DNA from: a virus
IMG/VR virus record: IMGVR_UViG_3300036716_000305
Coordinates: 1 to 52,777 of that record
Length of the DNA: 52,777 bases
Reading direction: 5' to 3' (one strand)
The notes below the pieces were generated by a model. It was not told the origin of the DNA, ran no database searches, and saw only the letters and a list, made by a program, of their open reading frames with translations. Shown one piece after another: positions 5,813 to 49,715 of this stretch; the first letter of the stretch is position 1, and every line of letters begins with the position of its first letter. The position numbers and the translations under genes were made by a program.

Positions 5813-8800
5813 ATGGCTAAGATTTCAGAAACGGAACTTCAGAGAAAACTAAGAAACGCTAAAACATCCTCTGGAACCACTGGAGGAAGAACTGCTGTTC
5901 AGAAGGACGGAGTTTGGGAATACACAAGCCCTGTTATTTATACGGCCTATGCCGATAATATTACTAATCGCTCAACAACCGGTAAGATTCCATCACAAGC
6001 AGATGCTGCGGGATTCCAATTGGAGCCGCATGATGCTGGTGGAGAACTGTTAGACTGGAGAGGGCACTTGTTCTCTACAAGTATTTATGAGTCCGGAGAT
6101 CCAACTGATTACACATGGGAGTTGGCCGACTATACTGGTGTTACAACATCTTTTGAGAGAAGCTATACAACATCTACTAAACTACTAGTTGACGTTGGAA
6201 ACCCAACCTTTCCGGGAACTGGCATAACTTGGACGTCAATTGCGTCTAACCTAGCCCTTCCAGATAATGCTTATTTTGTAGCAGAGAGGTACACAATTAA
6301 AGGAGCAACTTCAGCGTGGATGGTTTATCCTGTTGCTGTTGAGGAGAATGGCTTTGGTCTAATTCCTTACACAATAACTGGTAGAGATGCACCAGCCCTT
6401 AATAGTGCTCAGTGGAACACAGATACTTTAACAGCTGTTACTTCTTTTACTGGAAGAACATATTCAACTATTAAAGAGTTCGGATATGGAACAACTATTG
6501 TTATTACATACGATGATGGAAAGCTATATGGGCTACTTAAAAAGGTCAGTGGCACTGCATCTTTTGTTGCTCCTGTGGATTACATCGACGGTGCTTTACT
6601 TGTAGATACATCAATCATTGCAGACAAGATTGCCAACAACGCTATCACGGTTAATAAGATTCTTAACGACTCTATTAACGCTGATAAGATTGCTGATAAT
6701 GCAGTCACTACAGCAGCGATTATTAGCAACGCCATCAATTCAGATAAGATAGCTAACAACGCTGTAACATCTAATGAGATAGCTGCAAACACTATTGTTG
6801 CTAACAATATACAAGCTAACGCAATAGGTGCTAACGAGATAGCTGCAGATGCTATCACTGCTAATGAGATAGCCACAGACGCTGTTACGGCCAACGCCAT
6901 TCAGGCAGGATCTGTTGGTGCTAATGAGATAGCTGCAAATAGTATCACAGCAGGTGAGATAGCTGCAGACGCTATCACTGCAAGCGAAATAGCTGTAGAC
7001 GCTGTAGAGGCTTCAAGTATTAAGGCTGGAGCTGTCACAACAAACAAGATAGAGGCTTTAGCAATAACTGCTGAAACTATAGCGGCAAATGCCATCATAT
7101 CAGACAAGATTGCAACAAATGCTATCACCTCTGGAAAACTATTAATAACCGGAACAGGCAATGTCTCAGAAGTAATCACACCAGCTTATATTGGTGCACC
7201 AACTACTGCTGCATTAGCAACTGTAATTGGCGATGTTGCAACTGCACAGAGTACGGCTGACGGAAAGATAAACTCTTACTTTCAGGACGCTGCACCAACT
7301 AGTTTAACTGCTAGTGATGAAGGTGACTTATGGACAGACACCCTTGCTGCAAATAACAATGAATCATATAGATGGTCAGGAACCGCTTGGGAAGCTATTG
7401 CTGACGGTGGTATCGCAGATGCTATTGCAAGCGCTGCAGCTGCACAAAGTACTGCTGATGGAAAGGTCACAACCTTTTATCATGATGATCCTCCAACTGC
7501 TGAAGGTGAAGGTGACTTATGGGTAGACACTAATGATAGTAACAAACTACATAGGTGGAATGGAAGTGCTTGGCTAGATATTCATGATACAACATACTCC
7601 TCAATAGGTAGTATTACAGGAGGCATTTCAGCCTCTCAAGTTGCAAATGCTGTAAATACAAACTCAACAACAGTTGATGGCGGAAAGATTACAGCCGCCT
7701 CTATTGGAGCTTCACACTTAATTGTCAGTGGCGCAAACGCTGTTGAACTTGATGGTCTTAAAACATTTAGACAAACAACATCACCAACAGCAGAGAATGA
7801 AGGCGACCTATGGTATGACAGTGATGACCATAACAAACTATACAGGTGGGACGGCTCTACTTGGGTCTCAAATCAGGACAATACGGTTGCTGACAATATC
7901 TATTCGTCTGGCACAACCTATATAAATGGTGGTATTATAACTACAGACACAATTTCAGGCAATCATATTCAGGCTGGAGAGATTGATGCTGGCCACCTTA
8001 GTGTTGATTCTGTAACTGTAGATAAGATAAACGTTGATGGGCAATTAGACATTAGCGAATCGACAGGCTCGTTCACTTTTAAGAAGACAAAGTATAGTGA
8101 TTATTCAACAAACGGTGTCTTCCTAGGAAACAGAACAGGTAGCAACATACCCGTGTTCTTGGCAGGAAGCACTACAAGCTATATCCAAGTGGATGATGGT
8201 GGTGTAACTATCGTTGGTGCAGATTTTGCTGACTCAACAACTATTTCAACACCAGCATTGCCTAATGTTCCAACGGAATATAATACTAGTGGTCAATTTA
8301 CCTTTCCTATCTCTAGTGCTTACGACACGCTAACTTTTGAACTATCTGGTGCAGGTGGTGGTGGTGGTGGAGCTCGTGCAGGTGGTGGTAGTACCTCGGG
8401 TGGCGTAACCGGTGGACAAACCAAAGTAGAAATTTTAGATGGTAATGGTGCTGTTGTGAGTGGTGCAACATGGACAGCGAACGGTGGTTCAGGTGGTGGA
8501 CATAACACAACCGTAGCTTCTACTAGATATGGTGATGATTTTGACGTCTCACCAGTTGACACATTTTTTACAGGTGATGGCGGTACGGGAACCCCTTCAA
8601 ACCCAAGTAGTGGTACTTCCCATACTGGTAGCGTTGGTGGCGCGGTATCGTCTGGAGGCGAGGGTGGTGCTGATGGCGCATCTTGGTCTGACTTTGATGA
8701 CGATAGGTTTGGTGTTGGCGGTAGTGCTGGTAGCTTCTCCTCACCAAGTGCTTACACCCTACAAAGTTCTCACCATTCTGTAAGAGTGACGGTTGGAACT

Positions 8801-9237: not shown

Positions 9238-9675
9238 ATGTATGAGATAAAGCAAGTAGTCGGGGAAGATATCCTGATTAGATACAACAGCCTCAAGGTT
9301 GAAATTGATAGGGCGATGGAGCATTCTGACGGAGAGTGGAATGCTTCTCAAATTGTTACTAAATGCATTACTGACCCAGTTAACTTTCATATATGGGAAG
9401 TGTGTATAGATGGCTCTCCAGTTGCTATAGCGTCTACTAGGGTTATGTATTACAATAGTTTCACAGCCTTACATATAACAACACTCGGAGGTTCTGGATT
9501 GTACAATCACATGACGGACCTAATCGAAGAGTTTGAGGCAAAGGTAAGAGGGTACAAGAATATTGACTTTCTAGAATATACAGGACGGAAAGGGTTTCTT
9601 AAACAACTCACAAAGTCTGGTTGGAGAGAGACATACACTACTATGAGAAAAGATATCAGGGGGAATAATGAGTGA
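9238..9675 (+). CDS. GNAT-fold protein, T7 gp13-like position
   Basis: This 145-residue protein has an acyltransferase-like layout: strand-helix start, central strands (HIWEVCIDGSPVAIASTRV), then a C-terminal stretch LEYTGRKGFLKQLTKSGWRETYTTMRKDI resembling the end of GNAT domains. No clear acetyl-CoA loop (Q/RxxGxG/A) is visible, so enzymatic activity is doubtful. T7 gp13, needed for internal virion protein assembly, has a similar size and place before the core proteins. It overlaps the lysozyme gene by eight bases. A structural or assembly role is the favoured reading. Confidence 0.5.
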   Translation: MYEIKQVVGEDILIRYNSLKVEIDRAMEHSDGEWNASQIVTKCITDPVNFHIWEVCIDGSPVAIASTRVMYYNSFTALHITTLGGSGLYNHMTDLIEEFEAKVRGYKNIDFLEYTGRKGFLKQLTKSGWRETYTTMRKDIRGNNE

Positions 9676-30582: not shown

Positions 30583-33015
30583 TCAACAGAAGAAATAATC
30601 TGAATCAACGACCTTTGAGATATCCAGTCTTCCTAGTTTAGGAGGGTGTTCTGTATATCCAATACCAGCCATATCTTTTCTTATATGACCAAATATATCC
30701 CTATCGTACATATTGATAAAGACGCTCTTTGTTACTCTTACTAAGTCTTCAACATCATCTGCATGGACACTATAAGAATCATGAATAGCGCCAAACGATG
30801 TAATACCCATATCATGTAGTTCATTAATGACCAGTGACATATGGCTAGCATCCATGCTGTGAACGTAGTTGGGGCTTATCCCACTCATTACCTCATGTAT
30901 AGCTGGTATTTCAGTTTGCTCTCTATAAACTAAAACGATCTTTTTGTTTTTGTAGAACAATGATACATCCTTTTGTCGAGTTACCCACTTCTCAGATATA
31001 ACTGGGAAGCCACTGGGAGTTGACCAAGTAACACAACTATGCCCCTCATCTTTCATTACATACTTCACAACAGATTGCAGGTAGTTCTTAATAGCTACTG
31101 GGCCACTACATATAGTGTTGTATGTATCAACCAAGTCCTTACTAAGCTTTCTAGCGATTGACTTTGTTATTCCATACTTTGTGGTCATCCCGGCATTGTA
31201 GCAGTCTGTATAGATAATGTCAGCGATACAGTTGACTCCAGCATCGTATGCCTTGGTCATAGACCCACGCTTACTAATTCCTTTACGAATCAGCTTCATC
31301 GGTATCTTAGCCAAGACAGCGCCCAAGTCAGTACCAATATTTCTATTGATAATTCCTTTGGCCACAATGATGTAGAAGTCTATCGGCTTATCTTTAGGTA
31401 TTAAACCGACCATACCGCCAGACACCTCATCTCTACTCATAGCCGCTAGATGTTGTGTTCCGTTTGAACTTCCATCTATGGATATTGGTAGTCGTGTGTA
31501 GTATTCATCACCAGACAACAAAGAACCATGATAGGCACAAACTTCAAAACAAAGGGACAGAAATACCCAAGGTTTCTCAGCATCCATCCAAATGTCTTTA
31601 TTCTTTAATGGATCTTCAGCAATATCCCATAATAACTCGATATTCTCTTCAGCCCATCTAAACCTGTCATTTAGCGACATTTTGTCCACACTCAGGTCAG
31701 GTATTCCATCAGCCTTAAGGTCTGTCACATAGTCAACCTCGAGCCAATCAAGCTTATTCAACTCATTAATCGTATATGATTTGTTGAAACTGTTGGCTGT
31801 GTGGATCATCATCCACCTATAACCTTTGTCAGTCATTAACCTCTTCTCATTGAACATTAAATGCCCTCTGGCAAGGTCGCTAGACTGATATGAAAAGAAC
31901 GGGTCTTTAGCATATATACGCCCTCTAAAGTCTAAAAACATAGACTGATAGAAAGAGTACGATGCCCAGCCACTAGGACCATTAATAGTCTCTAAGATTG
32001 CCTTATCTCTAGCTGCTTTGGATTGTTTGGCTAAGCAGTATTGCTTTGCTATCCAATTCTGATTATGAGCCTCAAACAAGACTTCTGTCTCTTTGATTTG
32101 CTCCTTAATCTTTAAGGCAACCTTTCCACCATCCTTTAAAGACCTTACTCTTCTGAAGAGTTTATTCAATTCAGACTCAATAGTCTTAACTGTTGTGGCG
32201 TTTCCCTTTTCTGGTTGGAATATCGCTCCATCCTTGTACAGGTCTACACCAATCAATTGTTTATTGAACGAGCCTCTTCTGATGTCTCTTACATCAAACA
32301 CCCTGTCTTTATTATTTATATCTTTAAGAACTATGGTGGTCGAGGTAATGTCATCCTCTAAAGACTCTGAGACTCTTGCAACATCTGGATTAACAATCCA
32401 TTTGACAGATTCAAGGTTGTTGACCGCCTTTACATATTCAGCCTTTGATTCTATAGTGTTCACCTTAGACTTAACAAGCTTACTTTTAATACCACCTACC
32501 ATGCGCTCGTTGGACTCCCATTGGGGGTACTTGTAGAGGCTGATACCAGACCGTTCTTTCTCGATAAAGCTAATATCCATGAAGTTGACACCCATCTCTA
32601 AATGATATGGCTGTAATCTTAACGTTCTTGTGATATTGTTCGACTTTATCTGCTCTAATGTAAAGTACGGCTCTCTACCCATTACTAAGTAGTCCGCAGA
32701 CACTAGTCTTGTTAGTATTAGCCAACCAAGCCTCATCCTATCGTCAGATGATACATCTAGAGACAGGTTGTCTTTTACAATACCTCCAATAACCATGTTG
32801 GCATTTGTTAGCATTATGTGTCCATCATGCCTCCTGAATTGCCCAATTAGGGCGAGGAATGAATCTTTAACAATATTGAACATTCTAAAATCATCTCTAA
32901 GGCATTTTGCATTCCTGATGATCTTACATGCAATGTTATTATTGTTGCGCTTGTGCATAACGTAGTCTTCTACGATCCACACAATCTCTTGAATTTCATT
33001 TCGATTGTCTTGCAT
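30583..33015 (-). CDS. T7-like single-subunit RNA polymerase
   Basis: This protein (810 residues from the ATG at 33015, which follows AGGGTGG) has all T7-family motifs: DFRGR (362-366), motif A IDGSSNGTQH (D514), motif B KGISKRGSMTKAYD (K582, M586, Y590) and motif C IHDSYS (D746), with about 65 residues after it. Two positions differ from T7: the motif-B Arg627 equivalent is Lys578 (Arg577 next to it), and Gly640 is Asp591. It is the last early gene, followed directly by its likely promoter. It should transcribe middle and late genes. An upstream TTG start would add 17 residues. Confidence 0.93.
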   Translation of the reverse strand: MQDNRNEIQEIVWIVEDYVMHKRNNNNIACKIIRNAKCLRDDFRMFNIVKDSFLALIGQFRRHDGHIMLTNANMVIGGIVKDNLSLDVSSDDRMRLGWLILTRLVSADYLVMGREPYFTLEQIKSNNITRTLRLQPYHLEMGVNFMDISFIEKERSGISLYKYPQWESNERMVGGIKSKLVKSKVNTIESKAEYVKAVNNLESVKWIVNPDVARVSESLEDDITSTTIVLKDINNKDRVFDVRDIRRGSFNKQLIGVDLYKDGAIFQPEKGNATTVKTIESELNKLFRRVRSLKDGGKVALKIKEQIKETEVLFEAHNQNWIAKQYCLAKQSKAARDKAILETINGPSGWASYSFYQSMFLDFRGRIYAKDPFFSYQSSDLARGHLMFNEKRLMTDKGYRWMMIHTANSFNKSYTINELNKLDWLEVDYVTDLKADGIPDLSVDKMSLNDRFRWAEENIELLWDIAEDPLKNKDIWMDAEKPWVFLSLCFEVCAYHGSLLSGDEYYTRLPISIDGSSNGTQHLAAMSRDEVSGGMVGLIPKDKPIDFYIIVAKGIINRNIGTDLGAVLAKIPMKLIRKGISKRGSMTKAYDAGVNCIADIIYTDCYNAGMTTKYGITKSIARKLSKDLVDTYNTICSGPVAIKNYLQSVVKYVMKDEGHSCVTWSTPSGFPVISEKWVTRQKDVSLFYKNKKIVLVYREQTEIPAIHEVMSGISPNYVHSMDASHMSLVINELHDMGITSFGAIHDSYSVHADDVEDLVRVTKSVFINMYDRDIFGHIRKDMAGIGYTEHPPKLGRLDISKVVDSDYFFC

Positions 33016-33037
33016 AGCTACCACCCTATATAATGAA

Positions 33038-33196
33038 TTATTTGTCTTTCTTGTTAAAGGCGTCAATAACCCTTATTGGATTTACTTCCTTACCTCGCCT
33101 AGTATCTCGCCACTCATATGTGTAGCGTTCTTTACCTGTCACCGACCAATACACATCTGACTTAAAACCATCCCAAAGATCTTTGAAGAAGCTCAA
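33038..33196 (-). CDS. Small unknown protein (TTG start)
   Basis: A 52-residue product beginning (TTG)SFFKDLWDGFKSDVYWSVTG and ending VIDAFNKKDK. TTG overlaps the upstream TGA (TTGA) and follows GGAGAG six bases earlier, so coupled translation is likely. The sequence is aromatic and basic. It precedes the RNA polymerase gene by 22 bases. Function unknown. Confidence 0.55.
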   Translation of the reverse strand: MSFFKDLWDGFKSDVYWSVTGKERYTYEWRDTRRGKEVNPIRVIDAFNKKDK

Positions 33197-36846: not shown

Positions 36847-37242
36847 CTATCTTGTTAACATTATGCCAGAAGCCTCAATAACTGTAAAGTCACTATGCTT
36901 TATTGGCTTGTCATTTCCCACCACAAATGATGTATATTTGTAGGGATTAAAGCGCACTTTGCGAGTTGGTATGAATGTTTTGGCATTCTTATCAATCTGT
37001 ACCTTTCTTCCTAATCGGCTCACAAAGCCTTTCATTTGGACGATGTGTCCGTTAACTGTAGCTACTACAGCTTTACGCTTATCGCGTCTTATACGGGCAA
37101 CACCGGCCTCTGAGACCTGAAACGTCACATCTGAGAGCTTAATCTCGTCACAATGACCAACAACCAGCCCTGATGACTGATCTTTAATCGATAGCTTACC
37201 GTTGTGTAAGTTTCGATACACTTTGTACATTAAATTATTCAT
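36847..37242 (-). CDS. Unknown basic 131-residue protein
   Basis: MNNLMYKVYRNLHNGKLSIK... is strand-rich with Lys/Arg-rich segments (RIRRDKRKAVVATV, GFVSRLGRKVQIDKN, FIPTRKVRFNPYKY). It looks like a compact basic beta domain, perhaps nucleic-acid binding. Proteins with this 'YRNLHNGKLS...' start occur in other phages without known role. Its leader is nearly identical to that of the next upstream gene. Confidence 0.6.
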   Translation of the reverse strand: MNNLMYKVYRNLHNGKLSIKDQSSGLVVGHCDEIKLSDVTFQVSEAGVARIRRDKRKAVVATVNGHIVQMKGFVSRLGRKVQIDKNAKTFIPTRKVRFNPYKYTSFVVGNDKPIKHSDFTVIEASGIMLTR

Positions 37243-37275
37243 TTATTACTCCTATGTTATTGTTTATAACTTTCT
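37243..37275 (-). repeat. Repeated leader/ribosome-site sequence, copy 1
   Basis: Leftward AGTTATAAACAATAACATAG followed by GAGTAATAA precedes the gene starting at 37242. The second copy, before 37530, differs at one base within the shared part. Confidence 0.7.
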
Positions 37276-37530
37276 CTGCACCGGTAATCCATACTGTATG
37301 CCAGCCTCTAAAGCCTCTTTGCGATGTCTTTCGCTCCTTGCTCTTATGTGGCTAGCGACAATGTTAAGAAGCAAGAAAGTACCCTCATACAATTGCACCC
37401 CATCTTTAACCTCTTCGCCCTCAGATACTTTTATAACATTATCGATGTATCGTATAGCCGCTTCAGCGGATTCTACATCTGAAAACACTCCGTGCCACTC
37501 TAGTAGCCTCCATTCTGCGTCAGTTAACAT
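37264..37530 (-). CDS. Unknown 88-residue protein
   Basis: MLTDAEWRLLEWHGVFSDVE... is helical; the end (RARSERHRKEALEAGIQYGL) is basic. The ribosome site sits in a duplicated leader. Function unknown. Confidence 0.55.
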   Translation of the reverse strand: MLTDAEWRLLEWHGVFSDVESAEAAIRYIDNVIKVSEGEEVKDGVQLYEGTFLLLNIVASHIRARSERHRKEALEAGIQYGLPVQRKL

Positions 37531-37563
37531 ATTATTACTCCTATATTATTGTTTATAACTTTT
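37531..37563 (-). repeat. Repeated leader/ribosome-site sequence, copy 2
   Basis: Nearly identical to 37243-37275: leftward AGTTATAAACAATAATATAG then GAGTAATAA before the ATG at 37530. Confidence 0.7.
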
Positions 37564-40032: not shown

Positions 40033-40091
40033 TAACACACCTCATTGCCATCTGCAAGTTTTTATCCTCACAAATGGCAATAGGTTGTATT
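40033..40091 (-). repeat. Hairpin cassette family B, copy 1
   Basis: Leftward AATACAACCTATTGCCAT pairs with ATGGCAATGAGGTGTG across a 19-22 base loop. The flanks match copy 2 at 40474-40521 while the loops differ. Confidence 0.65.
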
Positions 40092-40401
40092 ATTGTTGCT
40101 TGTTAGATGGAGCAAAGTCAACATGCGCCACAGTAAACTCTGGCACTTTGAACTTAGACTCTTGAGATTGACCCATTGTCGGTGTAACCGTAACAATGAC
40201 AGGTGAACCAACCTTGAAATGATTGTTCAAGAACTCAGCAGTACTTTCAAAGGCCGTAAGAGGGAAGAACTCCGCTCTTGACTCGCCCTTAACTTGGTAG
40301 TTATGAGCCACCGATACCTTGGTGACTGACTTCTTACCGTTACGTGCTGGGAAATACTTAAGTGCTGCAATGTTACCTGCTAATGTGAAAGTTGTTTTCA
40401 T
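40090..40401 (-). CDS. SSB-like OB-fold protein
   Basis: This 103-residue protein resembles a bacterial-type SSB core: TLAGNIAALKYFPARNGKKS, VTKVSVAHNYQVKGESRAEF, FPLTAFESTAEFLNNHFKVG, SPVIVTVTPTMGQ. It lacks the acidic tail of SSB and ends in NKQQ. It lies in the early block near the control region. It could protect single-stranded DNA or assist the virion polymerase, as host SSB does for N4 vRNAP; the latter is speculation. Confidence 0.65.
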   Translation of the reverse strand: MKTTFTLAGNIAALKYFPARNGKKSVTKVSVAHNYQVKGESRAEFFPLTAFESTAEFLNNHFKVGSPVIVTVTPTMGQSQESKFKVPEFTVAHVDFAPSNKQQ

Positions 40402-40473
40402 GATATTTATACCTTTTGTTTTATTATAAGTGCCTCCGTAGCCTCATGACTACAGATAGCGTGATGTATTTAA

Positions 40474-40521
40474 TAACACATCTCATTGCCATCTTTATTG
40501 AAGATAGCAATAGGCTGTATT
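40474..40521 (-). repeat. Hairpin cassette family B, copy 2
   Basis: Leftward AATACAGCCTATTGCTATC pairs with GATGGCAATGAGATGTG, with G-U pairs that exist only in leftward RNA. Shares flanks with 40033-40091. Confidence 0.65.
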
Positions 40522-40606
40522 ACTTGATAAGAATCCAAGCGATTATAAAAGGAATAGCTGTCAGGCATGCTCCAGATATTACTAATAACATTTCTGCATC
40601 GTTCAT
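40520..40606 (-). CDS. Tiny membrane peptide (28 residues)
   Basis: MNDAEMLLVISGACLTAIPF IIAWILIK, one hydrophobic helix. Its ATG overlaps the upstream TGA (ATGA). A GGGGGGTG stretch lies six bases before. Function unknown. Confidence 0.45.
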   Translation of the reverse strand: MNDAEMLLVISGACLTAIPFIIAWILIK

Positions 40607-40842
40607 AGCACCCCCCATCGCTCTAGTTGAGCCTCTGTGAAGTCTCCATACTTGCCAAATGCCTTCAAGTCATGGCGAAATTGAGCTTCCTCCATCTCTT
40701 GGGTTTCGCTCAGTATCAACAAGAGCCTTTCTATCTCAGACCCTTGTTGACCCTCTGTCAAGTACTCAAACCACTCACAAACCTCTTCGCTTGGTCTGGA
40801 CAAGTGTACTTCTTTCCAGCAATCACTAAACATATTAAACAT
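40603..40842 (-). CDS. Unknown 79-residue protein
   Basis: MFNMFSDCWKEVHLSRPSEE... is acidic and helical (LLLILSETQEMEEAQFRHDL) and ends LERWGVL. Its ribosome site GGAGGTG lies in hairpin cassette A copy 1. Function unknown. Confidence 0.55.
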   Translation of the reverse strand: MFNMFSDCWKEVHLSRPSEEVCEWFEYLTEGQQGSEIERLLLILSETQEMEEAQFRHDLKAFGKYGDFTEAQLERWGVL

Positions 40843-40909
40843 AACGCACCTCCAGTGCTAAAGTAAACGATAGAGACTGCTCGTTAGAACAGCCTCGACT
40901 CTTACTCTA
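40843..40909 (-). repeat. Hairpin cassette family A, copy 1
   Basis: Leftward the unit begins with the stop codon (TAGAGTAAGAGTC), has a 10-bp stem (GAGGCTGTTC/GAGCAGTCTC, loop TAAC), then TATCGTTTACTTTAGCAC and GGAGGTGC, the ribosome site of the next gene. Two G-U pairs work only in leftward RNA. Confidence 0.8.
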
Positions 40910-41164
40910 TCCAATCCCAAAGTTCATTGAACATATGAACTTATAAATAGCTGGCTGAGACTTGCCATTAGGCCAGATCTTAGTCATCTTAAAGGACTGT
41001 GTGTATGGCTCTTCTTTCATGAACCATTTACGAAACGCAACGCGTCTCTTTGGTGAACTATCAAGTTCCTTAATCCACTTAGGATTAAACACCTTAAACT
41101 CAATTAAGGATTCGCCCGACTCATGGTGTGTTGCACCTGTCATTTCATAGCTTTCTTCTAACAA
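40907..41164 (-). CDS. Unknown 85-residue protein (TTG start)
   Basis: (TTG)LEESYEMTGATHHESGESL, then basic segments (FNPKWIKELDSSPKRRVAFR). TTG at 41164 is six bases after GGAGG in cassette A copy 2; an ATG seven codons later lacks such a site. Its stop codon forms the first bases of cassette copy 1. Function unknown. Confidence 0.5.
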   Translation of the reverse strand: MLEESYEMTGATHHESGESLIEFKVFNPKWIKELDSSPKRRVAFRKWFMKEEPYTQSFKMTKIWPNGKSQPAIYKFICSMNFGIG

Positions 41165-41230
41165 TTTGCACCTCCGTGCTTAAAGTAAACGATAAAGGCT
41201 ACTCTATGAATAGCCTTGACTCTTACTCTA
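41165..41230 (-). repeat. Hairpin cassette family A, copy 2
   Basis: Same plan as 40843-40909: TAGAGTAAGAGTC, a 9-bp stem (AAGGCTATT/AGTAGCCTT), TATCGTTTACTTTAAGCAC, then GGAGGTGC. Stem bases differ from copy 1 but pairing is kept. Confidence 0.8.
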
Positions 41231-41413
41231 CAACTCATGCTCTAACCCATACAGGCCAGACTGCTTATGTTTCCTTGTATATGAGCCTTTGACTCCAAAT
41301 ACAAAGTCAATATAGGCGGCTATGTGTGCTGAATGACTAGTGCAAGATCTGTACTTATCAAACGCACATTTAGCTTGTTGTAACGCTCTTTCTTCTCTTT
41401 CTCTATGTAACAC
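41228..41413 (-). CDS. Unknown 61-residue protein (GTG start)
   Basis: (GTG)LHREREERALQQAKCAFDK then AAYIDFVFGVKGSYTRKHKQ. A basic, partly helical product. GTG is seven bases after GGAGG in cassette copy 3. The ribosome-site/start sequence GGAGGTGCATTGTG is complementary to the loop of the early terminator (30468-30489). Function unknown. Confidence 0.5.
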   Translation of the reverse strand: MLHREREERALQQAKCAFDKYRSCTSHSAHIAAYIDFVFGVKGSYTRKHKQSGLYGLEHEL

Positions 41414-41486
41414 AATGCACCTCCGTGCTTAAAGTAAACGATAGATACTACTGGGTCTCAGTCCAATAGTATCGACTCTTACTCTA
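41414..41486 (-). repeat. Hairpin cassette family A, copy 3
   Basis: TAGAGTAAGAGTC, an 11-bp stem (GATACTATTGG/CCAGTAGTATC), TATCGTTTACTTTAAGCAC, GGAGGTGC. GCAC-GGAG-GTGC is itself a small hairpin that shows the ribosome site in its loop. Confidence 0.8.
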
Positions 41487-41765
41487 AATATGACCACCAC
41501 GCACACCCTTGCTACCACCAGCAAAACCATACGCACACTCAAGACTATCCCAAGCCTTAACATCCTCAGAGAGGAAGTCAACACAGACAACCCACTCCAT
41601 GAACATCGAAGACCCAACACCACACATAGCCTCAACCATGTGGTAAGCCTCGTCCTCAGTGCCAGCCTCAACAACAATCTCCTGACCAAACTTGTACTTC
41701 CATACAGGGTTAGTTGCATCGCCATAGTTCTCTTCTACCTGTGTAATTGCTTTATATGTGTTCAT
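41484..41765 (-). CDS. Unknown 93-residue protein, first early gene
   Basis: MNTYKAITQVEENYGDATNP, then FGQEIVVEAGTEDEAYHMVE, later FMEWVVCVDFLSEDVKAWDS and a Gly-rich basic end (GFAGGSKGVRGGH). The strand-helix-strand layout is compact. It is the gene nearest the control region and so likely the first transcribed after entry; such genes often counter host functions, but no evidence for that is seen here. Confidence 0.55.
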   Translation of the reverse strand: MNTYKAITQVEENYGDATNPVWKYKFGQEIVVEAGTEDEAYHMVEAMCGVGSSMFMEWVVCVDFLSEDVKAWDSLECAYGFAGGSKGVRGGHI

Positions 41766-41803: not shown

Positions 41804-41833
41804 TCTCGTCCTACGGGTTATAGAGAATAAATT
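41804..41833 (+). promoter_or_regulatory. Putative promoter for the phage RNA polymerase (rightward copy)
   Basis: Identical over 30 bases to 30552-30581 on the other strand. The core is CCTACGGGTTATAGAGAATA, with T7-like TATAG around the expected start. It points to terminase and the late block about 860 bases downstream. Confidence 0.75.
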
Positions 41834-42024: not shown

Positions 42025-42360
42025 GTACTATAAGCTGACCTTTGGGAAGCAAAGACACTGAGTGTACTTAGTGTACTTGAGTGTGCTTGTATGTACAATG
42101 TATGTACAATGTATGTACCATTGAGTACCCTTGGGGTTAAACATACGTACACCACACGCACCATCAGTACACCATGATCCCTACAGTAACTCAGCGAATA
42201 CAGTGTACCTTATGGTGATAATGTACCCACAATGTACCCACAGTACCCATCTGTACCCATCTGTACCTATATGTATCATGCGACCTTTGGGAGCAGTGTG
42301 ATCTTAAAGTACTGTGTGTACCTATAAGCCGCCATCCGTCCTGTTAGTCATCGATCGTAC
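42025..42360. repeat. Dense, helically phased GTAC array
   Basis: GTAC occurs 18 times in 336 bases, against about one or two expected by chance. Most spacings are 9-11, 18-22 or 38-39 bases, that is one, two or four helical turns. Local forms are TATGTACAA (twice) and TGTACCCA (several). Likely a protein-binding array such as an origin or regulator site. Confidence 0.75.
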
Positions 42361-43183: not shown

Positions 43184-44818
43184 ATGAAACATGACCCTCA
43201 AGAGTTGTTGCTAGAGATGCAGAGGAGAGAGTCTTGGAAGCTTTACAAGGACGACCCATTAAAGTTTATAAACGAATGTTTGTGGATATATCCTAAAGAC
43301 CCCTCACAGGGTAAGATAAAGCTTACAGTTAATAAGGCACAGGAATTAGTTGTTGCAGAGTTTGTTAGACAGATGAAGGATACTGGTAGGGTGAGAATGA
43401 TTATCGCCAAGTATAGACAGGCAGGATTTAGTACAATATCCTCAGCTCTTATCTTCCACAGGTCTTTATTCTTTGAATCTACTCGGTCTGTTATTATTTC
43501 CTTAGACAAGCCAACAACAGAAAGTATTTTTAGTATGTCACAAACCTTTTGGGAAAACCTTCCTCAGGAATTAAAGCCCATACTCTCTCAAGCTAATAAA
43601 AGAGAGATGAAGTTTGAAGACAACAAGAGTATGTATAGATGTTTTACAGCCGGTGCAGACAATCCCGGACGAGGAACAACTAACACAGCTCTTCTATGTG
43701 ATGAAACAGCGTTCTTCCAGAATGCCGCTAAAGTTATGGCTGGTCTATTCCAGTCAATATCTACAGCAAAAGGAACAATCATTATTATTAATAGCACCTC
43801 TAATGGTGCTCAAGGTGTTTACTACGATCTATGGAATAAGGCTGAGAAAGGGGAAGGACAATTCACCCCATTATTTGTTCCTTGGTATCTTCAAGATGAA
43901 TATACGCTTGAAGTTCCTGACGATTTAGAGATGACTTTAGATGAAAAGAAGTTAAAAGAACAATGGTCCCTTACAGATGGGCAAATTTTCTGGAGACGAA
44001 TAAAAATATCTGAAACATCAACCTCTACATTTAAACAAGAATATCCCTTCACGGCTGAAGAATCCTTCATCCAATCGGGATCAAACGTGTTTGATATGGA
44101 GGCAATTAAGAAGTACATATCAACACCATATGCTTCGCTTAGAGCTTTCAATAGAGAGTACGCTTCGTTCGATGAGAATGAGGACGGTCACCTAAGTGTG
44201 TGGGAGCCACCAGCCAGAGATAGTAAGTACCTAATAGGTGCAGACGTCGCAGGTGGTGTCGGAGGAGACTACAGTGTAGCAGTGGTAATGGACAGCGATA
44301 GAAATATTGTTGCCATGTACAGGAATAATAAGATCGACCCTGTTTACTTCGGTCAAGTTTTATTCTACCTAGGAAGATGGTATCATAACTGTCTTTTGGC
44401 CTGTGAGAGCAACTCAATAGGTCTTGCAACATTACAACAGTTGTTCAGCATGAATTACCCATCGATATACCAGCAAAAGAAAACTGCCAACATAAGGCAA
44501 GCATCTGATGTTACATCTTTAGGTTTTAGAACAACATCTGCTTCAAAGACTCCAATCATATCAAACTTACAATCGCTTATTAAGGATTATGATATAAACA
44601 TCCCGAGTCAAATTATTCTCGACGAGCTTAGAAACTATATACTCGTTGGAGATAATCAAAAAATGACAGCAGCACCCGGACACTATGACGACACAGTTAT
44701 GGCTTTAGCTATATGCTGCGAAGCATGGAGAACACATGGACATGCATTAACAAACCGAGCGTTTTCGTTCGGGGAATCAAATAACTATTCAACCCAGATA
44801 GAAACTAACTGGATTTAA
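43184..44818 (+). CDS. terL: Terminase large subunit (packaging ATPase/nuclease)
   Basis: This 544-residue protein powers DNA packaging. ATPase part: a deviant Walker A KYRQAGFSTIS (76-86) and Walker B LLCDETAFF (170-178). Nuclease part: IGADVAGGVGGDYS with Asp354, ACESNSIG and HYDDTVMALA with Asp502/Asp503, the RNase-H-like metal site. It docks on the portal encoded next. AGGAGTATTATT precedes the ATG. Packaging mode (headful or site-specific) cannot be read from the window. Confidence 0.93.
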   Translation: MKHDPQELLLEMQRRESWKLYKDDPLKFINECLWIYPKDPSQGKIKLTVNKAQELVVAEFVRQMKDTGRVRMIIAKYRQAGFSTISSALIFHRSLFFESTRSVIISLDKPTTESIFSMSQTFWENLPQELKPILSQANKREMKFEDNKSMYRCFTAGADNPGRGTTNTALLCDETAFFQNAAKVMAGLFQSISTAKGTIIIINSTSNGAQGVYYDLWNKAEKGEGQFTPLFVPWYLQDEYTLEVPDDLEMTLDEKKLKEQWSLTDGQIFWRRIKISETSTSTFKQEYPFTAEESFIQSGSNVFDMEAIKKYISTPYASLRAFNREYASFDENEDGHLSVWEPPARDSKYLIGADVAGGVGGDYSVAVVMDSDRNIVAMYRNNKIDPVYFGQVLFYLGRWYHNCLLACESNSIGLATLQQLFSMNYPSIYQQKKTANIRQASDVTSLGFRTTSASKTPIISNLQSLIKDYDINIPSQIILDELRNYILVGDNQKMTAAPGHYDDTVMALAICCEAWRTHGHALTNRAFSFGESNNYSTQIETNWI

Positions 44819-44832
44819 AGGAGCGAGAGAGA

Positions 44833-46986
44833 ATGGATCACTCAAAAATAACCGACGAGGAATTGTTAGCATCAATTGACTCAAAGGTAAGGAATAGTGT
44901 AGGCGGAGCTACGGGGTCATCAGACCTCTCTAAAAAGCGAGAAAGTTCTACATACGAATATACTATGGACCCTAGGGGTGATTTAGCACCACAAGGCGTA
45001 TCAAAAATTGTATCCTCGGATACTGTTGAGATTATCGAGGGGTATACGTCCTTGCTAGTAAAGCTATTACTAGATAACAATAAATTAGCAAATTTTATAC
45101 CTAGGTCTGCGACAGCTAGAGACATCCATGATGCCAAAACAGCATCAGACATAGTTAACTACTGTATCTTTAATAAGAACGATGGTTGGAGAATTATTAA
45201 CACTTGGATCAAATCTTCATTATTATATGGAAACGGAACGGTTAGCTGGATATGGGAAGAGGCAGCAGATTATGAAATAGAAGAGTACGATGAGATTCCT
45301 GAGGCTGTTCTTGACGAACTCCTTGCGGACTCAAACGTTGAGATAGTGGGCGAACTGGAAATCAGCGAAGAAATTAACCCTGAGAACCCTGAGATCGTCT
45401 ATCAGAATGTCCGACTAAGAAGAAAGGTAGATAAGTCTAGAGTGACTTTCGATGCCATTCCTCCTGAGACATTCTTAATCAACAGGTCGGCAACGAGCAT
45501 TCAAAGTGCCTCGTTTATTGGAAAGGTAACTGAGTTGTCTCATTCAGAGATTAGACAAATGTTTCCTGAGTTCAAAAAGGATCTAAGCGAACTAGGCGAA
45601 AACGCAGAATCTTCAAGAGGCAGTCATTGGTCCTCTGAGAAGTTCTCACGTAGAGACGCTACTGGTATTGAAAACCTTGGTTATGAAGAAGAAGACGAGG
45701 AAGCCAATACTATTGTAGAAGTTATCGAGTGCTGGATTAGATCGGACAGAGATGGTGATGGTATTGCTGAATTAAAGCATGTTATCAAAGCTGGTGAAGA
45801 TATCCTTTTAGAAGAAGATGTCTCATACATCCCTGTGGCTGACCTGAACCCTATTGAAGTGCCTCACGAACACTTTGGACTATCTTTATCAGATATGGTC
45901 CGCCCACAAATGCAAGCTACTACAGCTATCATGCGTGGATTCGTTGAGAATGTTTATTATGGTAACTACGGAAGAACATTAGCAGATCCTAATGTTGTTG
46001 ACTTCGCAGCTTTACAGAACCCTGTTCCTAAGCAAATTATCGCTACGAATGGTACACCTGTAAACTCTGTTCAACAACTAAACCCTGAGCCTATCAGCTC
46101 TGGGACACAAGGTATGTTAGAATTCTTACAGTTGCAGAAAGAGCAAGCTACTGGATTAACAAAAGCATCTATGGGTCTTAATGACGCACTATATGTTTCT
46201 GGAAACTCAGCAGAGAAGACAGCACAAGCTCAATCAGCAGCTCAAATTCGTATCGAACATATAGCTAGAAGATTTATGGAGACAGGTCTTAAAGACTTGT
46301 GTAGAGGTCTTCTTAAAGAAATGAAGCAGAATATTAAAGAAGATATGATGTATAAAACCGAAGCCGGTTATGCGTCCATCTCTCCTTTGGATCTGCAAAG
46401 AATACCTTCAAATATGGATTTGGATATTCAAGCCAATCTTGGTGAAAACTCAAACTCTTCCCTGCAACAAAAGCTTGGGAAAGTGGCTGAGCTATTACCT
46501 ATGATGGCACAAGACCCAGAGGCTAGAAAGTATATTTCTCCTCAGGCTGCTATGAACTTAGGAACTCAAATGATTAACTCAATGGGCTTTGACCCGCTGG
46601 ATTACTTCGTTGACCCTGAAGACCAGCAGACAATGGATCTTGTTCAGAAGCAAATCGATCAAGAGGCGCAAGGTGCACAACAGGCTAAAGAGCTTGAGAT
46701 GAAGACCATCACAGCAAACATTAGTTTGGTTAAGGCTGAAGTTGACAATAAGAAGATTGACAACAAGAGGCAATTACTAGAAGCGCAGGATGAATCAAAT
46801 CGTAAGTGGGCTGAGTTGGAGATTAAGGCTGTTCAAGCTGGAACACCTCCAATCAAAACTGTACCACTAGACTTTCCAACTCTTTATACAGACACGGAAG
46901 GTAACGAGAAGAGACAGGCTGAGCATGAGCAAATGAAACAGCAAGCCGCCCAACAGCAGCAAGCTGGTCAAGAGCCACAACAATAA
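44833..46986 (+). CDS. Portal protein
   Basis: This 717-residue protein is the dodecameric head vertex. The N-terminal wing (VEIIEGYTSLLVKLLLDNNK...), DGWRIINTWIKSSLLYGNGT, a central RRKVDKSRVTFDAIPPETFL with NRSATSIQSASFIG, a DRDGDGIAELKHVI segment, then a long helical stem and a Gln-rich C-terminal barrel (KQQAAQQQQAGQEPQQ) match P22-type portals of podoviruses. Size fits P22 gp1. It follows terL by 14 bases. Confidence 0.88.
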   Translation: MDHSKITDEELLASIDSKVRNSVGGATGSSDLSKKRESSTYEYTMDPRGDLAPQGVSKIVSSDTVEIIEGYTSLLVKLLLDNNKLANFIPRSATARDIHDAKTASDIVNYCIFNKNDGWRIINTWIKSSLLYGNGTVSWIWEEAADYEIEEYDEIPEAVLDELLADSNVEIVGELEISEEINPENPEIVYQNVRLRRKVDKSRVTFDAIPPETFLINRSATSIQSASFIGKVTELSHSEIRQMFPEFKKDLSELGENAESSRGSHWSSEKFSRRDATGIENLGYEEEDEEANTIVEVIECWIRSDRDGDGIAELKHVIKAGEDILLEEDVSYIPVADLNPIEVPHEHFGLSLSDMVRPQMQATTAIMRGFVENVYYGNYGRTLADPNVVDFAALQNPVPKQIIATNGTPVNSVQQLNPEPISSGTQGMLEFLQLQKEQATGLTKASMGLNDALYVSGNSAEKTAQAQSAAQIRIEHIARRFMETGLKDLCRGLLKEMKQNIKEDMMYKTEAGYASISPLDLQRIPSNMDLDIQANLGENSNSSLQQKLGKVAELLPMMAQDPEARKYISPQAAMNLGTQMINSMGFDPLDYFVDPEDQQTMDLVQKQIDQEAQGAQQAKELEMKTITANISLVKAEVDNKKIDNKRQLLEAQDESNRKWAELEIKAVQAGTPPIKTVPLDFPTLYTDTEGNEKRQAEHEQMKQQAAQQQQAGQEPQQ

Positions 46987-47010
46987 GTAGTTAAAAGGAG
47001 ACGTTGAGAG

Positions 47011-47328
47011 ATGAACTATAAACGTACTCCCGGACACAAAAGCGTCGAGGGGAAGCCTAAAAAGGTGACCCCTTACGATGACGCCCAAAGGGTTCTGGAG
47101 AAAGGATGGGGTTGTGAAGATTTAAAAGACACAATGACATTCGTATATGAAGACTTGATGAATGATTTATTCAAGGCTTGGATTGAGACTAAACATCACG
47201 AAACCCAAGCAAGAGAATTTATCTATCACCAAGCGGTTTCGCTAGGGGCAGTTCAAGCTAACATAGAGAGAGCAGTTACAGCGAAAACTAATAAAACTCG
47301 TGAGCTAGAAGGAGATGATGATGAGTAG
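47011..47328 (+). CDS. Unknown 105-residue protein between portal and scaffold
   Basis: MNYKRTPGHKSVEGKPKKVT has a basic flexible start, followed by a helical, aromatic middle (DDLKDTMTFVYEDLMNDLFK-like) and an acidic end (TRELEGDDDE). It may be a small head protein. Function unknown. Overlaps the next gene by eight bases. Confidence 0.55.
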   Translation: MNYKRTPGHKSVEGKPKKVTPYDDAQRVLEKGWGCEDLKDTMTFVYEDLMNDLFKAWIETKHHETQAREFIYHQAVSLGAVQANIERAVTAKTNKTRELEGDDDE

Positions 47329-47491
47329 AGAAAGAAAAGCTATTGAGAATTTAGAGTCGATTATTTCGGTAATGATTAATGATATGAGTATTGGCGCATC
47401 CTATGTTAGGACAAATGCGTCTTCATGCTTAGATATGATTAATCTTGTTGATAAAATCCAAGCTAGAATCCCAAAAGATAAAAAGAAATAG
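47321..47491 (+). CDS. Unknown 56-residue helical protein
   Basis: MSRERKAIENLESIISVMIN DMSIGASYVRTNASSCLDMI NLVDK... ending IPKDKKK. It has a ribosome site (GAAGGAGATGATG) and overlaps the previous gene by eight bases. Hydrophobic helices suggest a small structural or membrane-interacting protein. Confidence 0.55.
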   Translation: MSRERKAIENLESIISVMINDMSIGASYVRTNASSCLDMINLVDKIQARIPKDKKK

Positions 47492-47567
47492 AGGTTCTTG
47501 AAGAACCCTTGATGAGAGAAGTGAGAGTTGTTCAAGACTCTCTTTAACAAAAAGGAGAACTTAAATT
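47492..47567 (+). promoter_or_regulatory. Leader with small hairpins before the scaffold gene
   Basis: GGTTC-TTGAA-GAACC (47493-47507) and GAGAGT...ACTCTC (47523-47542) can fold, and TCTTGAA/TTCAAGA can pair alternatively. The scaffold ribosome site AAAGGAG follows. This may be a processing or expression-level signal. Confidence 0.4.
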
Positions 47568-48701
47568 ATGAGTGAAAATTCTACCGGCTCAGCCGATGAT
47601 GCAAACACGAATGATTCAGTATTTGAAGGCGCAATGGATGATGCAATTGATAGTTTATTAGATAAAGCAGTTGAAAGTGGAACACTACAACCAGCTTATG
47701 ATGAACAGGACGAAGCATCTACCCCGAGCGAGGACGAGGACACAGAAGAACTTGAAGGCGAAGAAGAAGACCAAGCTGACGAGGACGCTGAAAATGTTGA
47801 TGAAGATGAAGATGATGCCACCGAAGACGAGGAAGAATCCAAGGATGATGAAGAATCTACCCTTGATGATGAAACTGAGGAAGAGGAAGAAGGCGAGCTA
47901 GATATGGACTTTATGGTTCCCGTTAAAGTTGACGGAGAAGAATCAGAAGTTACATTAGAAGAGCTTGTTAAAGGCTATCAAACTAATCAGAGCCAGACTA
48001 AGAAAGGTCAAGAATTGGCAGAACAGGCCAAGGAACTAAAAGTTGCAAAGGATAAGGCAGATTTGTTTTCGCAAATTAATGTCGAACTTCTTAAACAGCA
48101 AGATGATAGAGATAAGAGCTTACTAAAGAGTCGCAAGGACATTATGGACTTGGTGGCGAAGGGTGAGTATGTAGAAGGCGTTGATGATGACCTAGCTACT
48201 TTGCAATACAAGTACAAGTCCTTAGAGGATGAGTATACTACTCGCAAAGCAGATAGAGACTCAACAGTGTCCAAGATGGAAGAGGCAAACAAAGAGAGAT
48301 ATGAAGAGGTCGTTAAGGAGCGTGTTGAAAATTTCCAAAAGGAAATAAAGAACATCATCCCTGACTGGTCTACTGAGATCGCTCAAGAAAACTACAAGTT
48401 CGCAATTGATCAAGGAATCCCTGAGGGGTTTGTTGCGTCAATTACCGATCCTGAGATTGCCAAATTCATCGATGACTACAGAAGACTAAAATCTTCATCG
48501 TCTAAAGGTGCTGTTAAGAGAAAGAAAGTCCCTGTAAAGAAAGTTCCTAATAAAAAGCCTGTTTCTGATAAAGTTAAACAGAAGAGCAAGACAAGCAAAG
48601 CACGTTCACGAGTCCAAAAAGGAAAAGGCTCCGACAGCGACTTTGCTACAATCAACGATGGAATCTACGATGATATTTTTGATGGGTCTGAACTCTTCTA
48701 G
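47568..48701 (+). CDS. Capsid scaffolding protein
   Basis: This 377-residue protein has an extreme Glu/Asp-rich N-terminal third (about residues 45-125), a coiled helical middle (KGQELAEQAKELKVAKDKAD) and a Lys-rich C-terminus (KRKKVPVKKVPNKKP) that can bind the capsid protein. Composition and place directly before the capsid gene are typical of scaffolds. No protease motif is seen. AAAGGAG precedes the ATG. Confidence 0.82.
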   Translation: MSENSTGSADDANTNDSVFEGAMDDAIDSLLDKAVESGTLQPAYDEQDEASTPSEDEDTEELEGEEEDQADEDAENVDEDEDDATEDEEESKDDEESTLDDETEEEEEGELDMDFMVPVKVDGEESEVTLEELVKGYQTNQSQTKKGQELAEQAKELKVAKDKADLFSQINVELLKQQDDRDKSLLKSRKDIMDLVAKGEYVEGVDDDLATLQYKYKSLEDEYTTRKADRDSTVSKMEEANKERYEEVVKERVENFQKEIKNIIPDWSTEIAQENYKFAIDQGIPEGFVASITDPEIAKFIDDYRRLKSSSSKGAVKRKKVPVKKVPNKKPVSDKVKQKSKTSKARSRVQKGKGSDSDFATINDGIYDDIFDGSELF

Positions 48702-48722
48702 CTATTTATAGGAGAAATTATA

Positions 48723-49715
48723 ATGGCAACTGTATTTAATACAACAAACGCGGGTTCTCAACGTGAGGACCTAGCGAACTTCATCTCAAACATTGTTCGT
48801 GATGAAACACCATTCATGTCATCGATTGGCAAGACATCTGCAAAAGCATTGTTACATAGCTGGTCAACTGACGAGCTAGCTGTACCGGGTGCTAACAACG
48901 CTGCTGAAGGCGCTGGCTTCCCAAGTACTGTTTCTGCGGGTCCTGAAATCGTTCAACTTACCAACCAAACACAAATCTTTACTAAGTCTATCGAAGTATC
49001 AGGCTCAGTTGAGGCGGTTGATAAAGCTGGTCGTAAGTCAGAATTCAAATACCAATCTACTAAGCGTGGTAAAGAATTGATGCGTGATATCGAATGGGCT
49101 CTTACAACTGGTAAAGGTGTTAAATCATCATCAGGCAACCGTTTGATGGGTGGTTTTCAATCATGGGTTCCAGCTGGTAACACAGTAAACGCTTCTGGTG
49201 GTGCTATCACTTTAGGTAACGCTACTGGTGCAGATGTACCAACTTCTGCTGGTACTGCAGCTGCATTCTCTTTGTCACAAGTTGACCAAGTAATGCAAAA
49301 CTGTTACGAGAATGGTGGACGCCCTAACACTCTTATGATGTCTCCAAGAGTTAAGAGAACTTTCTCTACAGCTGCTCAAGGTCAAGCTGCCAACGGTAAC
49401 GTTCGTCGTAACATTGACGATTCTGGTAAGCTACGTCAATCAGTTGAAATCTATGAGACTGACTTTGGTGTTGTTAAGGTTGTCCCTAACTATGTTATGG
49501 GTTCAACTGGATCAGGTGCTGGCGCGGCTAACGCTGCTGCAGACGACAACGTACTAGTCTATGACGCTTCAACGTTTAAGATGGCTGTACTACGTCCATT
49601 GCATCACAGAGACATCTCTGAAGATGGTGACCGTCTACGTGCGCTTATGGTTCACGAGACTACGCTGGAGTGTGCAAACCCTTCTGCTAACGGTCTGATC
49701 GACAACCTAAGCTAA
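48723..49715 (+). CDS. Major capsid protein (DUF5309/SU10-like)
   Basis: This 330-residue protein begins with REDLANFISNIVRDETPFMS and continues with TEIVQ-like segments (SKSIEVSGSVEAVDKAGRKS) typical of the DUF5309/SU10-type HK97-fold capsid proteins. The Ala/Gly-rich C-terminal part and the codon use (CGT, GGT, AAC; more regular than neighbours) fit a highly expressed protein. It is followed by a strong hairpin. It starts 22 bases after the scaffold gene with AGGAGAAATTATA as ribosome site. Confidence 0.88.
   Translation: MATVFNTTNAGSQREDLANFISNIVRDETPFMSSIGKTSAKALLHSWSTDELAVPGANNAAEGAGFPSTVSAGPEIVQLTNQTQIFTKSIEVSGSVEAVDKAGRKSEFKYQSTKRGKELMRDIEWALTTGKGVKSSSGNRLMGGFQSWVPAGNTVNASGGAITLGNATGADVPTSAGTAAAFSLSQVDQVMQNCYENGGRPNTLMMSPRVKRTFSTAAQGQAANGNVRRNIDDSGKLRQSVEIYETDFGVVKVVPNYVMGSTGSGAGAANAAADDNVLVYDASTFKMAVLRPLHHRDISEDGDRLRALMVHETTLECANPSANGLIDNLS

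What the first reader, a model, noticed from the sequence alone, without database searches (positions are those of the whole stretch)
40843..41486. Three copies of a stop-codon-to-ribosome-site hairpin cassette between small early genes
Each unit spans the full gap between two genes. It has conserved flanks (TAGAGTAAGAGTC and TATCGTTTACTTTAAGCAC-GGAGGTGC) and a central stem whose bases differ but keep pairing, using G-U pairs only in leftward RNA. Covariation with conserved flanks implies a selected RNA structure. The cassettes recall promoter-stem-loop elements that help shuffle small genes in T4-type phages, but the sequence is different. The first three bases double as the stop codon of the gene before.
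Basis: partly seen in the sequence, partly recalled or inferred. Interest (0 to 1): 0.72.

Follow-up and report, generated by a model that had tools for sequence, protein, structure and literature searches.

The report
T7-type RNase III cutting sites
The three hairpin cassettes are almost certainly sites where the host enzyme RNase III cuts the phage's early messenger RNA into single-gene pieces, the same kind of signal known from phage T7 but here in an uncultivated phage with unrelated capsid genes and with each gene's stop codon built into the foot of the hairpin.

Summary
The repeats are real and under-described. Their "conserved flanks" pair with each other (UAGAGUAAG/UUUACUUUA), so each unit is a two-tier hairpin: a 9-bp lower stem, an asymmetric 4/5-nt internal loop (AGUC/UAUCG) and a 10-11 bp upper stem. 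This is the anatomy of the T7 R1.1 RNase III substrate.

A covariance model built only from T7 and T3 RNase III sites ranks exactly these three units first in the 52.8-kb window, on the correct strand (best E=1.7e-7). The reverse model, from the window family, finds T7 R1.1 and R0.5 and the annotated T3 R0.5 and R1.1. Covariation over 20 units in the window and seven other contigs supports both stems.

A motif-free scan finds five such hairpins in the window, all leftward and all between consecutive early genes. All five begin on a stop codon.

The genome combines a distant T7-like RNA polymerase with SU10-type portal and capsid, so T7-type sites occur outside T7-type virion lineages. The T4 PeSL comparison fails because there is no promoter. 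Cleavage itself is inferred, not shown. Verdict: a new member of a known kind, with a stop-codon-fused arrangement that may be a group trait.

The parts
41428..41488 (-). Two-tier hairpin A1 (e1|e2 gap): stop codon TAG 41486-41484 is the foot of the lower stem; upper stem 11 bp; predicted RNase III cut between 41441 and 41440 (UAU^CG)
   Evidence: cut position by analogy with T7 R1.1 nt 5887 (PMC8708148)
41417..41428 (-). RBS mini-hairpin GCAC-GGAG-GTGC ahead of e2
41181..41230 (-). Two-tier hairpin A2 (e2|e3 gap), best match to the T7/T3 RNase III model; predicted cut between 41192 and 41191
41168..41179 (-). RBS mini-hairpin GCAC-GGAG-GTGC ahead of e3
40859..40909 (-). Two-tier hairpin A3 (e3|e4 gap); predicted cut between 40870 and 40869
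40846..40858 (-). RBS mini-hairpin GCAC-TGGAG-GTGC ahead of e4
40472..40524 (-). Two-tier hairpin B1, different sequence (TAATACA-GCCT-ATTGC...), between a 28-codon ORF and SSB; its conserved part starts on TAA 40522-40520
40033..40092 (-). Two-tier hairpin B2, sister of B1, between SSB and the gp88-like gene; starts on the SSB stop TAA 40092-40090
41484..41765 (-). early gene e1 (93 aa), no family match
41228..41413 (-). early gene e2 (61 aa, GTG start), no family match
40907..41164 (-). early gene e3 (85 aa, TTG start), no family match
40603..40842 (-). early gene e4 (79 aa), no family match
40520..40606 (-). 28-codon ORF (MNDAEMLLVISGACLTAIPFIIAWILIK), start overlaps e4 stop (ATGA), stop is the foot of hairpin B1
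   Evidence: read directly from the sequence printed
40090..40401 (-). single-strand DNA-binding protein
   Evidence: Pfam SSB E=1.5e-7, phrog_44
30583..33066 (-). single-subunit T7-like RNA polymerase (context)
   Evidence: PF00940 E=2.3e-73; about 25-27% identity to cultured phages

Best explanation
The units are intercistronic RNase III processing sites of the T7 type. The leftward early operon is transcribed as one polycistronic RNA. Each intergenic hairpin offers the host's RNase III about two turns of duplex interrupted by an asymmetric internal loop. By analogy with T7 R1.1, RNase III nicks the 3' side of that loop (UAU^CG). The upstream mRNA then ends in a protective hairpin directly after its stop codon, and the downstream mRNA starts with a short leader (about 25-30 nt) carrying the SD in a weak GCAC-GGAG-GTGC hairpin. 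Shown here: structure, strand, covariation, position and two-way match to known sites. Inferred: transcription as one unit, cleavage by RNase III, the exact cut, and the effect on stability and translation.
For: 1) A model built only from T7/T3 sites (A3) gives the three units as the top three hits in the window with filters off, all on the right strand: 42.6 bits E=1.7e-7, 27.1 bits E=8e-4, 18.2 bits E=0.11; the next is 14.4 bits. Over 901 kb of 86 loci it finds only units of the window's relatives (E 1.5e-6 to 5e-4), then nothing below E=0.94. 2) The reverse model from the window family finds T7 R1.1 E=5.6e-6, T3 R0.5 3e-5, T3 R1.1 3.5e-5, T7 R0.5 0.002; the T3 sites are annotated as RNase III recognition sites in its record. 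3) Same 4/5 asymmetric internal loop as R1.1 (R1.1 described so in PMC6121014). 4) Covariation over 20 units: 97.8% of cells paired, 13 of 18 pairs with double changes, 0 of 500 shuffles as high, collapse on sliding. 5) Five hairpins in five consecutive early-gene gaps, none elsewhere in the genome. 6) A degenerate core pattern run over 2.9 million viral contigs returned 33 stretches, mainly from 37-41 kb genomes (T7 and other T7-like isolates by length and content) plus the window's relatives.
Against: No RNA data exist for this phage. The host is unknown, and its RNase III may have other preferences (S. meliloti RNase III cuts R1.1 at an atypical site; PMC6121014). Units A1 and A3 match the T7/T3 model less well because their upper stems diverge. 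B-type hairpins have 3/3 loops and no sequence match to T7 sites. No match to the T7/T3 model was found in the closest cultured phage by terminase (CRP-7), nor in SP6, gh-1 or HMO-2011. CM E-values are from shortened calibration.
Confidence: 0.91

Rival explanations
1. Intrinsic terminators or attenuators between early genes: the upper stem plus U-rich TATCGTTTACTTT lowers transcription step by step.
For: The consensus scan flags all three as terminator-like.
Against: The 'U-tract' is the paired 3' arm of a conserved, covarying lower stem, which a terminator does not need. The upper stems hold only 4-5 G-C pairs. Downstream genes have no recurrent promoter of their own. The closest known relatives are RNase III sites, not terminators.
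Confidence: 0.05
2. Recombination cassettes (PeSL-like) whose main role is to let small early genes be swapped between phages.
For: Copies are homogenised within genomes (terminal loop identity 47% within vs 21% between; three near-identical copies in L269). The same hairpin plus RBS cassette borders unrelated genes in L269. Early-gene content differs between relatives, and one gene sits in different positions beside units.
Against: The defining promoter is absent. The structure is explained in full by RNase III recognition. Homogenisation may be a by-product of short repeats. Not exclusive with the best explanation.
Confidence: 0.1
3. Protein- or ligand-binding regulatory leaders (cis-regulatory RNA) acting on translation, with no RNase III cleavage.
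For: The units lie directly upstream of the SD; the RBS sits in a small hairpin; no Rfam family at gathering score.
Against: The match to RNase III sites and the 4/5 loop need no extra ligand. The main hairpin does not sequester the SD.
Confidence: 0.03
4. Convergence (a question of origin, not of function, so not exclusive with the best explanation): RNase III sites unrelated by descent to those of T7; the sequence likeness reflects shared enzyme preference.
For: SU10-type virion genes and an RNAP only about 25% identical to cultured phages; no such sites found in SP6, gh-1 or CRP-7.
Against: The likeness extends to AAGG..ATTC..GAGT..CCTTTAT, beyond what the enzyme is known to need (own knowledge).
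Confidence: 0.35

Closest known systems
Phage T7 R1.1 and R0.5 RNase III processing sites
   Same: Two-tier hairpin, 4/5 internal loop, TCAAGG...CCTTTAT core, gaps of the early operon; in R0.5 the gene 0.4 stop codon also lies in the lower stem
   Different: The stop codon forms the exact foot of the lower stem in most units here, but its offset is scattered in T7-like phages; in the window the 3' arm runs into a GCAC-GGAG-GTGC RBS hairpin; UAUCG instead of UAUGA in the loop
Phage T3 RNase III recognition sites (annotated R0.5, R1.1)
   Same: Found by the window-family model; R1.1 lower stem GAGAGTTAA/TTAACTTTC is close to L107 TAGAGTTA/TAACTTTA
   Different: T3 has five annotated early sites spread over about 5.7 kb (0.3-1.3); here five sites lie in 1.5 kb between very small genes
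T4-type PeSL cassettes
   Same: Repeated stem-loops between small early genes
   Different: PeSLs are promoter-terminator composites; no promoter here, different structure

Membership tests
T7-type RNase III processing sites | Irregular hairpin of about two turns with asymmetric (4/5) internal loop | tested here: met
   A1-A3 have lower 9-11 bp, loop 4/5, upper 10-11 bp; R1.1 described as 4/5 in PMC6121014
T7-type RNase III processing sites | Sequence-structure match to known sites | tested here: met
   T7/T3-only model: top three hits; reverse model finds T7/T3 sites
T7-type RNase III processing sites | Between co-directional genes of the early region, sense strand | tested here: met
   All in leftward gaps e1 to gp88-like gene, none elsewhere; 'early' is inferred from synteny (SSB, small ORFs, position)
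T7-type RNase III processing sites | Structure conserved by covariation | tested here: met
T7-type RNase III processing sites | Cleaved by RNase III in vivo and in vitro | not testable with these tools
   needs bench work
T7-type RNase III processing sites | In B1 and B2: sequence match to T7 sites | tested here: not met
   not among hits of R1 or R2; only the two-tier architecture is shared
T4 PeSL | Early sigma-70 promoter in each cassette | tested here: not met
   no promoter-like site recurs at the units
T4 PeSL | Mediates gene shuffling among relatives | tested here: inconclusive
   homogenised copies and variable gene content; no junctions mapped
Intrinsic terminator | G+C-rich stem followed by an unpaired U-run | tested here: not met
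   U-rich arm is paired in the lower stem

The most novel reading that the evidence does not exclude
In this phage group the stop codon is welded to the foot of the RNase III hairpin (14 of 20 A-type units, plus both B-type in the window). A terminating ribosome would then mask the lower stem and make mRNA cutting wait for, or report on, translation of the upstream gene; and the cassette (stop, hairpin, RBS) works as a ready-made module for inserting new small early genes.
Probability: 0.15. Interest if true: 0.62.

Novelty: new member of a known kind. Interest (0 to 1): 0.4.

Why it matters
T7-type RNase III sites were defined in T7 and its relatives. Here they occur, at sequence level, in uncultivated phages that pair a distant T7-like RNA polymerase with an SU10-type portal and capsid. 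So this way of splitting early mRNA is either older than, or has moved between, phage lineages. The two-tier scan and covariance models give a simple way to annotate such sites in viral metagenomes. The stop-codon-fused form makes a link between translation termination and RNase III cutting testable.

Tried and rejected
Rfam at gathering score: no match. BLASTN of 38-44 kb against cultured phages: no match. The first exact-pattern scan (TATCGTTTACTTTA) mostly returned chance matches, but exposed L107. A second scan with a loose gapped pattern was again mostly noise, giving L132 and L230. The gh-1 'putative RNase III sites' in its record do not fold like T7 sites and were not used for the model; T7 and T3 R1.3 were also left out because their lower stem is short. 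Terminator, promoter and PeSL readings were considered and set aside. No RNase III domain was found in the 30 window proteins scanned against Pfam (not every ORF was scanned), so host RNase III is assumed.

Full report
What is there. On the minus strand of 40843-41486 three units fill the gaps between four very small genes. Each begins with the TAG stop of the gene before and ends just before the start codon of the next. Read as RNA, the two 'conserved flanks' are complementary: UAGAGUAAG pairs with UUUACUUUA. The unit is therefore one long hairpin: lower stem 9 bp, internal loop AGUC/UAUCG (4/5 nt), upper stem 10-11 bp, loop 3-8 nt. A weak second hairpin, GCAC-GGAG-GTGC, then carries the Shine-Dalgarno. 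Leftward RNA folds to -25.9 to -29.4 kcal/mol (z -3.7 to -5.1, none of 200 shuffles as good); rightward RNA is much weaker.

Context. The window is a whole IMG/VR virus record. It encodes a single-subunit T7-like RNA polymerase (about 25-27% identical to cultured phages), SSB next to the units, primase, helicase, ribonucleotide reductase and ThyX, but an SU10-type portal and capsid protein. The closest cultured phage by terminase is Roseobacter phage CRP-7 (43%). The proteins of e1-e4 match no family.

Relatives. Pattern scans and covariance searches found further units in L107, L132, L230, L268/L269, L276, L288 and L289. L107, L132, L269 and L289 share the window's terminase at 62-65% identity; L230 and L276 are linked by SSB and early genes to that group. 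In 20 aligned units 97.8% of cells pair, 13 of 18 pairs show double changes (5 of 8 in the lower stem), and none of 500 shuffles reaches this. Sliding the partner by 1-3 columns drops pairing to 37-55%. Examples in the lower stem: UAGAGUAA/UUUACUUUA, UAGAGUUA/UAACUUUA, AAAGUAUA/UAUACUUU, UAAAUAGU/AUUAUUUA. The structure was derived from these sequences and some rows were fetched by patterns covering part of it, so the counts lean in its favour. The pattern, however, did not touch the lower stem, and L276d and L289b came from the model.

Identity. T7 R1.1 reads AACTCAAGGTCATTCGCAAGAGTGGCCTTTATGATTGACCTT; window unit A2 reads AGAGTCAAGGCTATTCATAGAGTAGCCTTTATCGTTTACTTT. To test this, a covariance model was built from T7 and T3 sites only. 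In the window with filters off its three best hits are the three units on the correct strand: 42.6 bits E=1.7e-7, 27.1 bits E=8e-4, 18.2 bits E=0.11. The best other hit is 14.4 bits. Across 86 loci (901 kb, mostly unrelated viral contigs) it finds only units of relatives, then nothing better than E=0.94. The model made from the window family finds T7 R1.1, T3 R0.5, T3 R1.1 and T7 R0.5; the two T3 sites are annotated in the record as RNase III recognition sites. Calibration was short, so E-values are rough; the ranking does not depend on them.

Five sites, not three. A scan with no sequence motif (upper stem at least 9 bp, internal loop 3-5/3-6, lower stem at least 7 bp) over both strands of the whole window gives exactly five hits. 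All are leftward and all lie in the gaps from e1 to the gp88-like gene: the three units plus 40524-40472 and 40092-40033. The two extra ones are sisters of each other and flank SSB. Controls: 1 hit in ten shuffled single-strand genomes, and 6 hits in 923,666 bases of unrelated viral loci. Positive controls: T7 R0.5, T3 R0.5 and T3 R1.1 are recovered, and SP6 shows three such hairpins. Five early sites in a row parallel the R0.3-R1.3 series of T7 and T3.

Stop codon. In the window all five hairpins start on a stop codon (TAG x3, TAA x2). For the first B-type hairpin the stop belongs to a 28-codon ORF whose start overlaps the e4 stop; there the scan also counts two extra pairs outside the stop codon. 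In the group 14 of 20 A-type units have offset zero. Both TAA and TAG can pair with the UUUA of the 3' arm, so the constraint is compatible with either stop. In T7-like isolates the offset varies from -28 to +6, with a few at zero. This is the main difference from the T7 form.

How it most likely works. R1.1 is cut at T7 nucleotide 5887 (PMC8708148), that is after UUUAU on the 3' side of the internal loop. The same point here is UAU^CG: 41441|41440, 41192|41191 and 40870|40869. The upstream message would keep a hairpin right after its stop codon; the downstream message would start with a short leader and its SD. A single cut that leaves a folded 3' end is reported to stabilise mRNA, though R1.1 is reported inconsistently as cut once or twice (PMC6993053). 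T7 has ten such sites (PMC9135205). Cleavage here is inferred.

Cassette question. Copies within a genome resemble each other more than copies between genomes, most clearly in the unpaired loop (47% vs 21%), and L269 has three near-identical copies. The AAGCACGGAGGTGCATT leader recurs in L269 before a gene unrelated to e2. This suggests copying of the module along with, or between, small genes, but no junction was mapped. The PeSL label fails because no promoter recurs at the units.

Verdict. A real, selected RNA element, correctly spotted. Its identity is a T7-type RNase III processing site in a lineage outside T7-type virions, with a stop-codon-fused variation. A new member of a known kind.

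Noticed in passing
window 41805-41832 (+) and 30580-30553 (-): A 28-nt sequence CTCGTCCTACGGGTTATAGAGAATAAAT occurs twice, identical, once pointing at the rightward late genes and once leftward just after the RNA polymerase gene; it looks like a promoter of the phage's own single-subunit RNA polymerase.
   Followed up: partly
L107 5860-5810, 5070-5003, 4385-4322 (minus): A leader repeated before three early genes forms a hairpin whose loop (GTGTC or GTGCC) can pair with a downstream GACAC or GGCAT just before the SD: a covarying pseudoknot candidate.
   Followed up: no
window 43184-49715 and 30583-33066: The genome joins an SU10-type portal and capsid protein with a T7-like RNA polymerase; closest cultured terminase is Roseobacter phage CRP-7 at 43%.
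   Followed up: partly
window 40606-40520 (minus): A 28-codon ORF encoding a membrane-helix-like peptide, starting in an ATGA overlap with the stop of e4 and ending at the foot of hairpin B1.
   Followed up: partly
window 37240-37273 and 37528-37562 (minus): A 35-nt leader with SD (TATAAACAATAATATAGGAGTAATA) repeated before two neighbouring genes, 94% identical.
   Followed up: no
window 42084-42130: Tandem 11-nt units (TGTATGTACAA) in the 0.9-kb non-coding region between the leftward and rightward operons, possibly an origin or regulatory iterons.
   Followed up: no
L230, L276, L289 just downstream of units: A shared leader GATTAAACCT(C/A)AGTAGGTC follows the RNase III-type hairpin in three different contigs.
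   Followed up: no
L257 (SP6) 2366-2413, 8527-8583, 9363-9419: Three two-tier hairpins, two of them overlapping the stop codons of gp6 and gp12, that resemble RNase III sites but do not match the T7/T3 model; not annotated in the record.
   Followed up: partly
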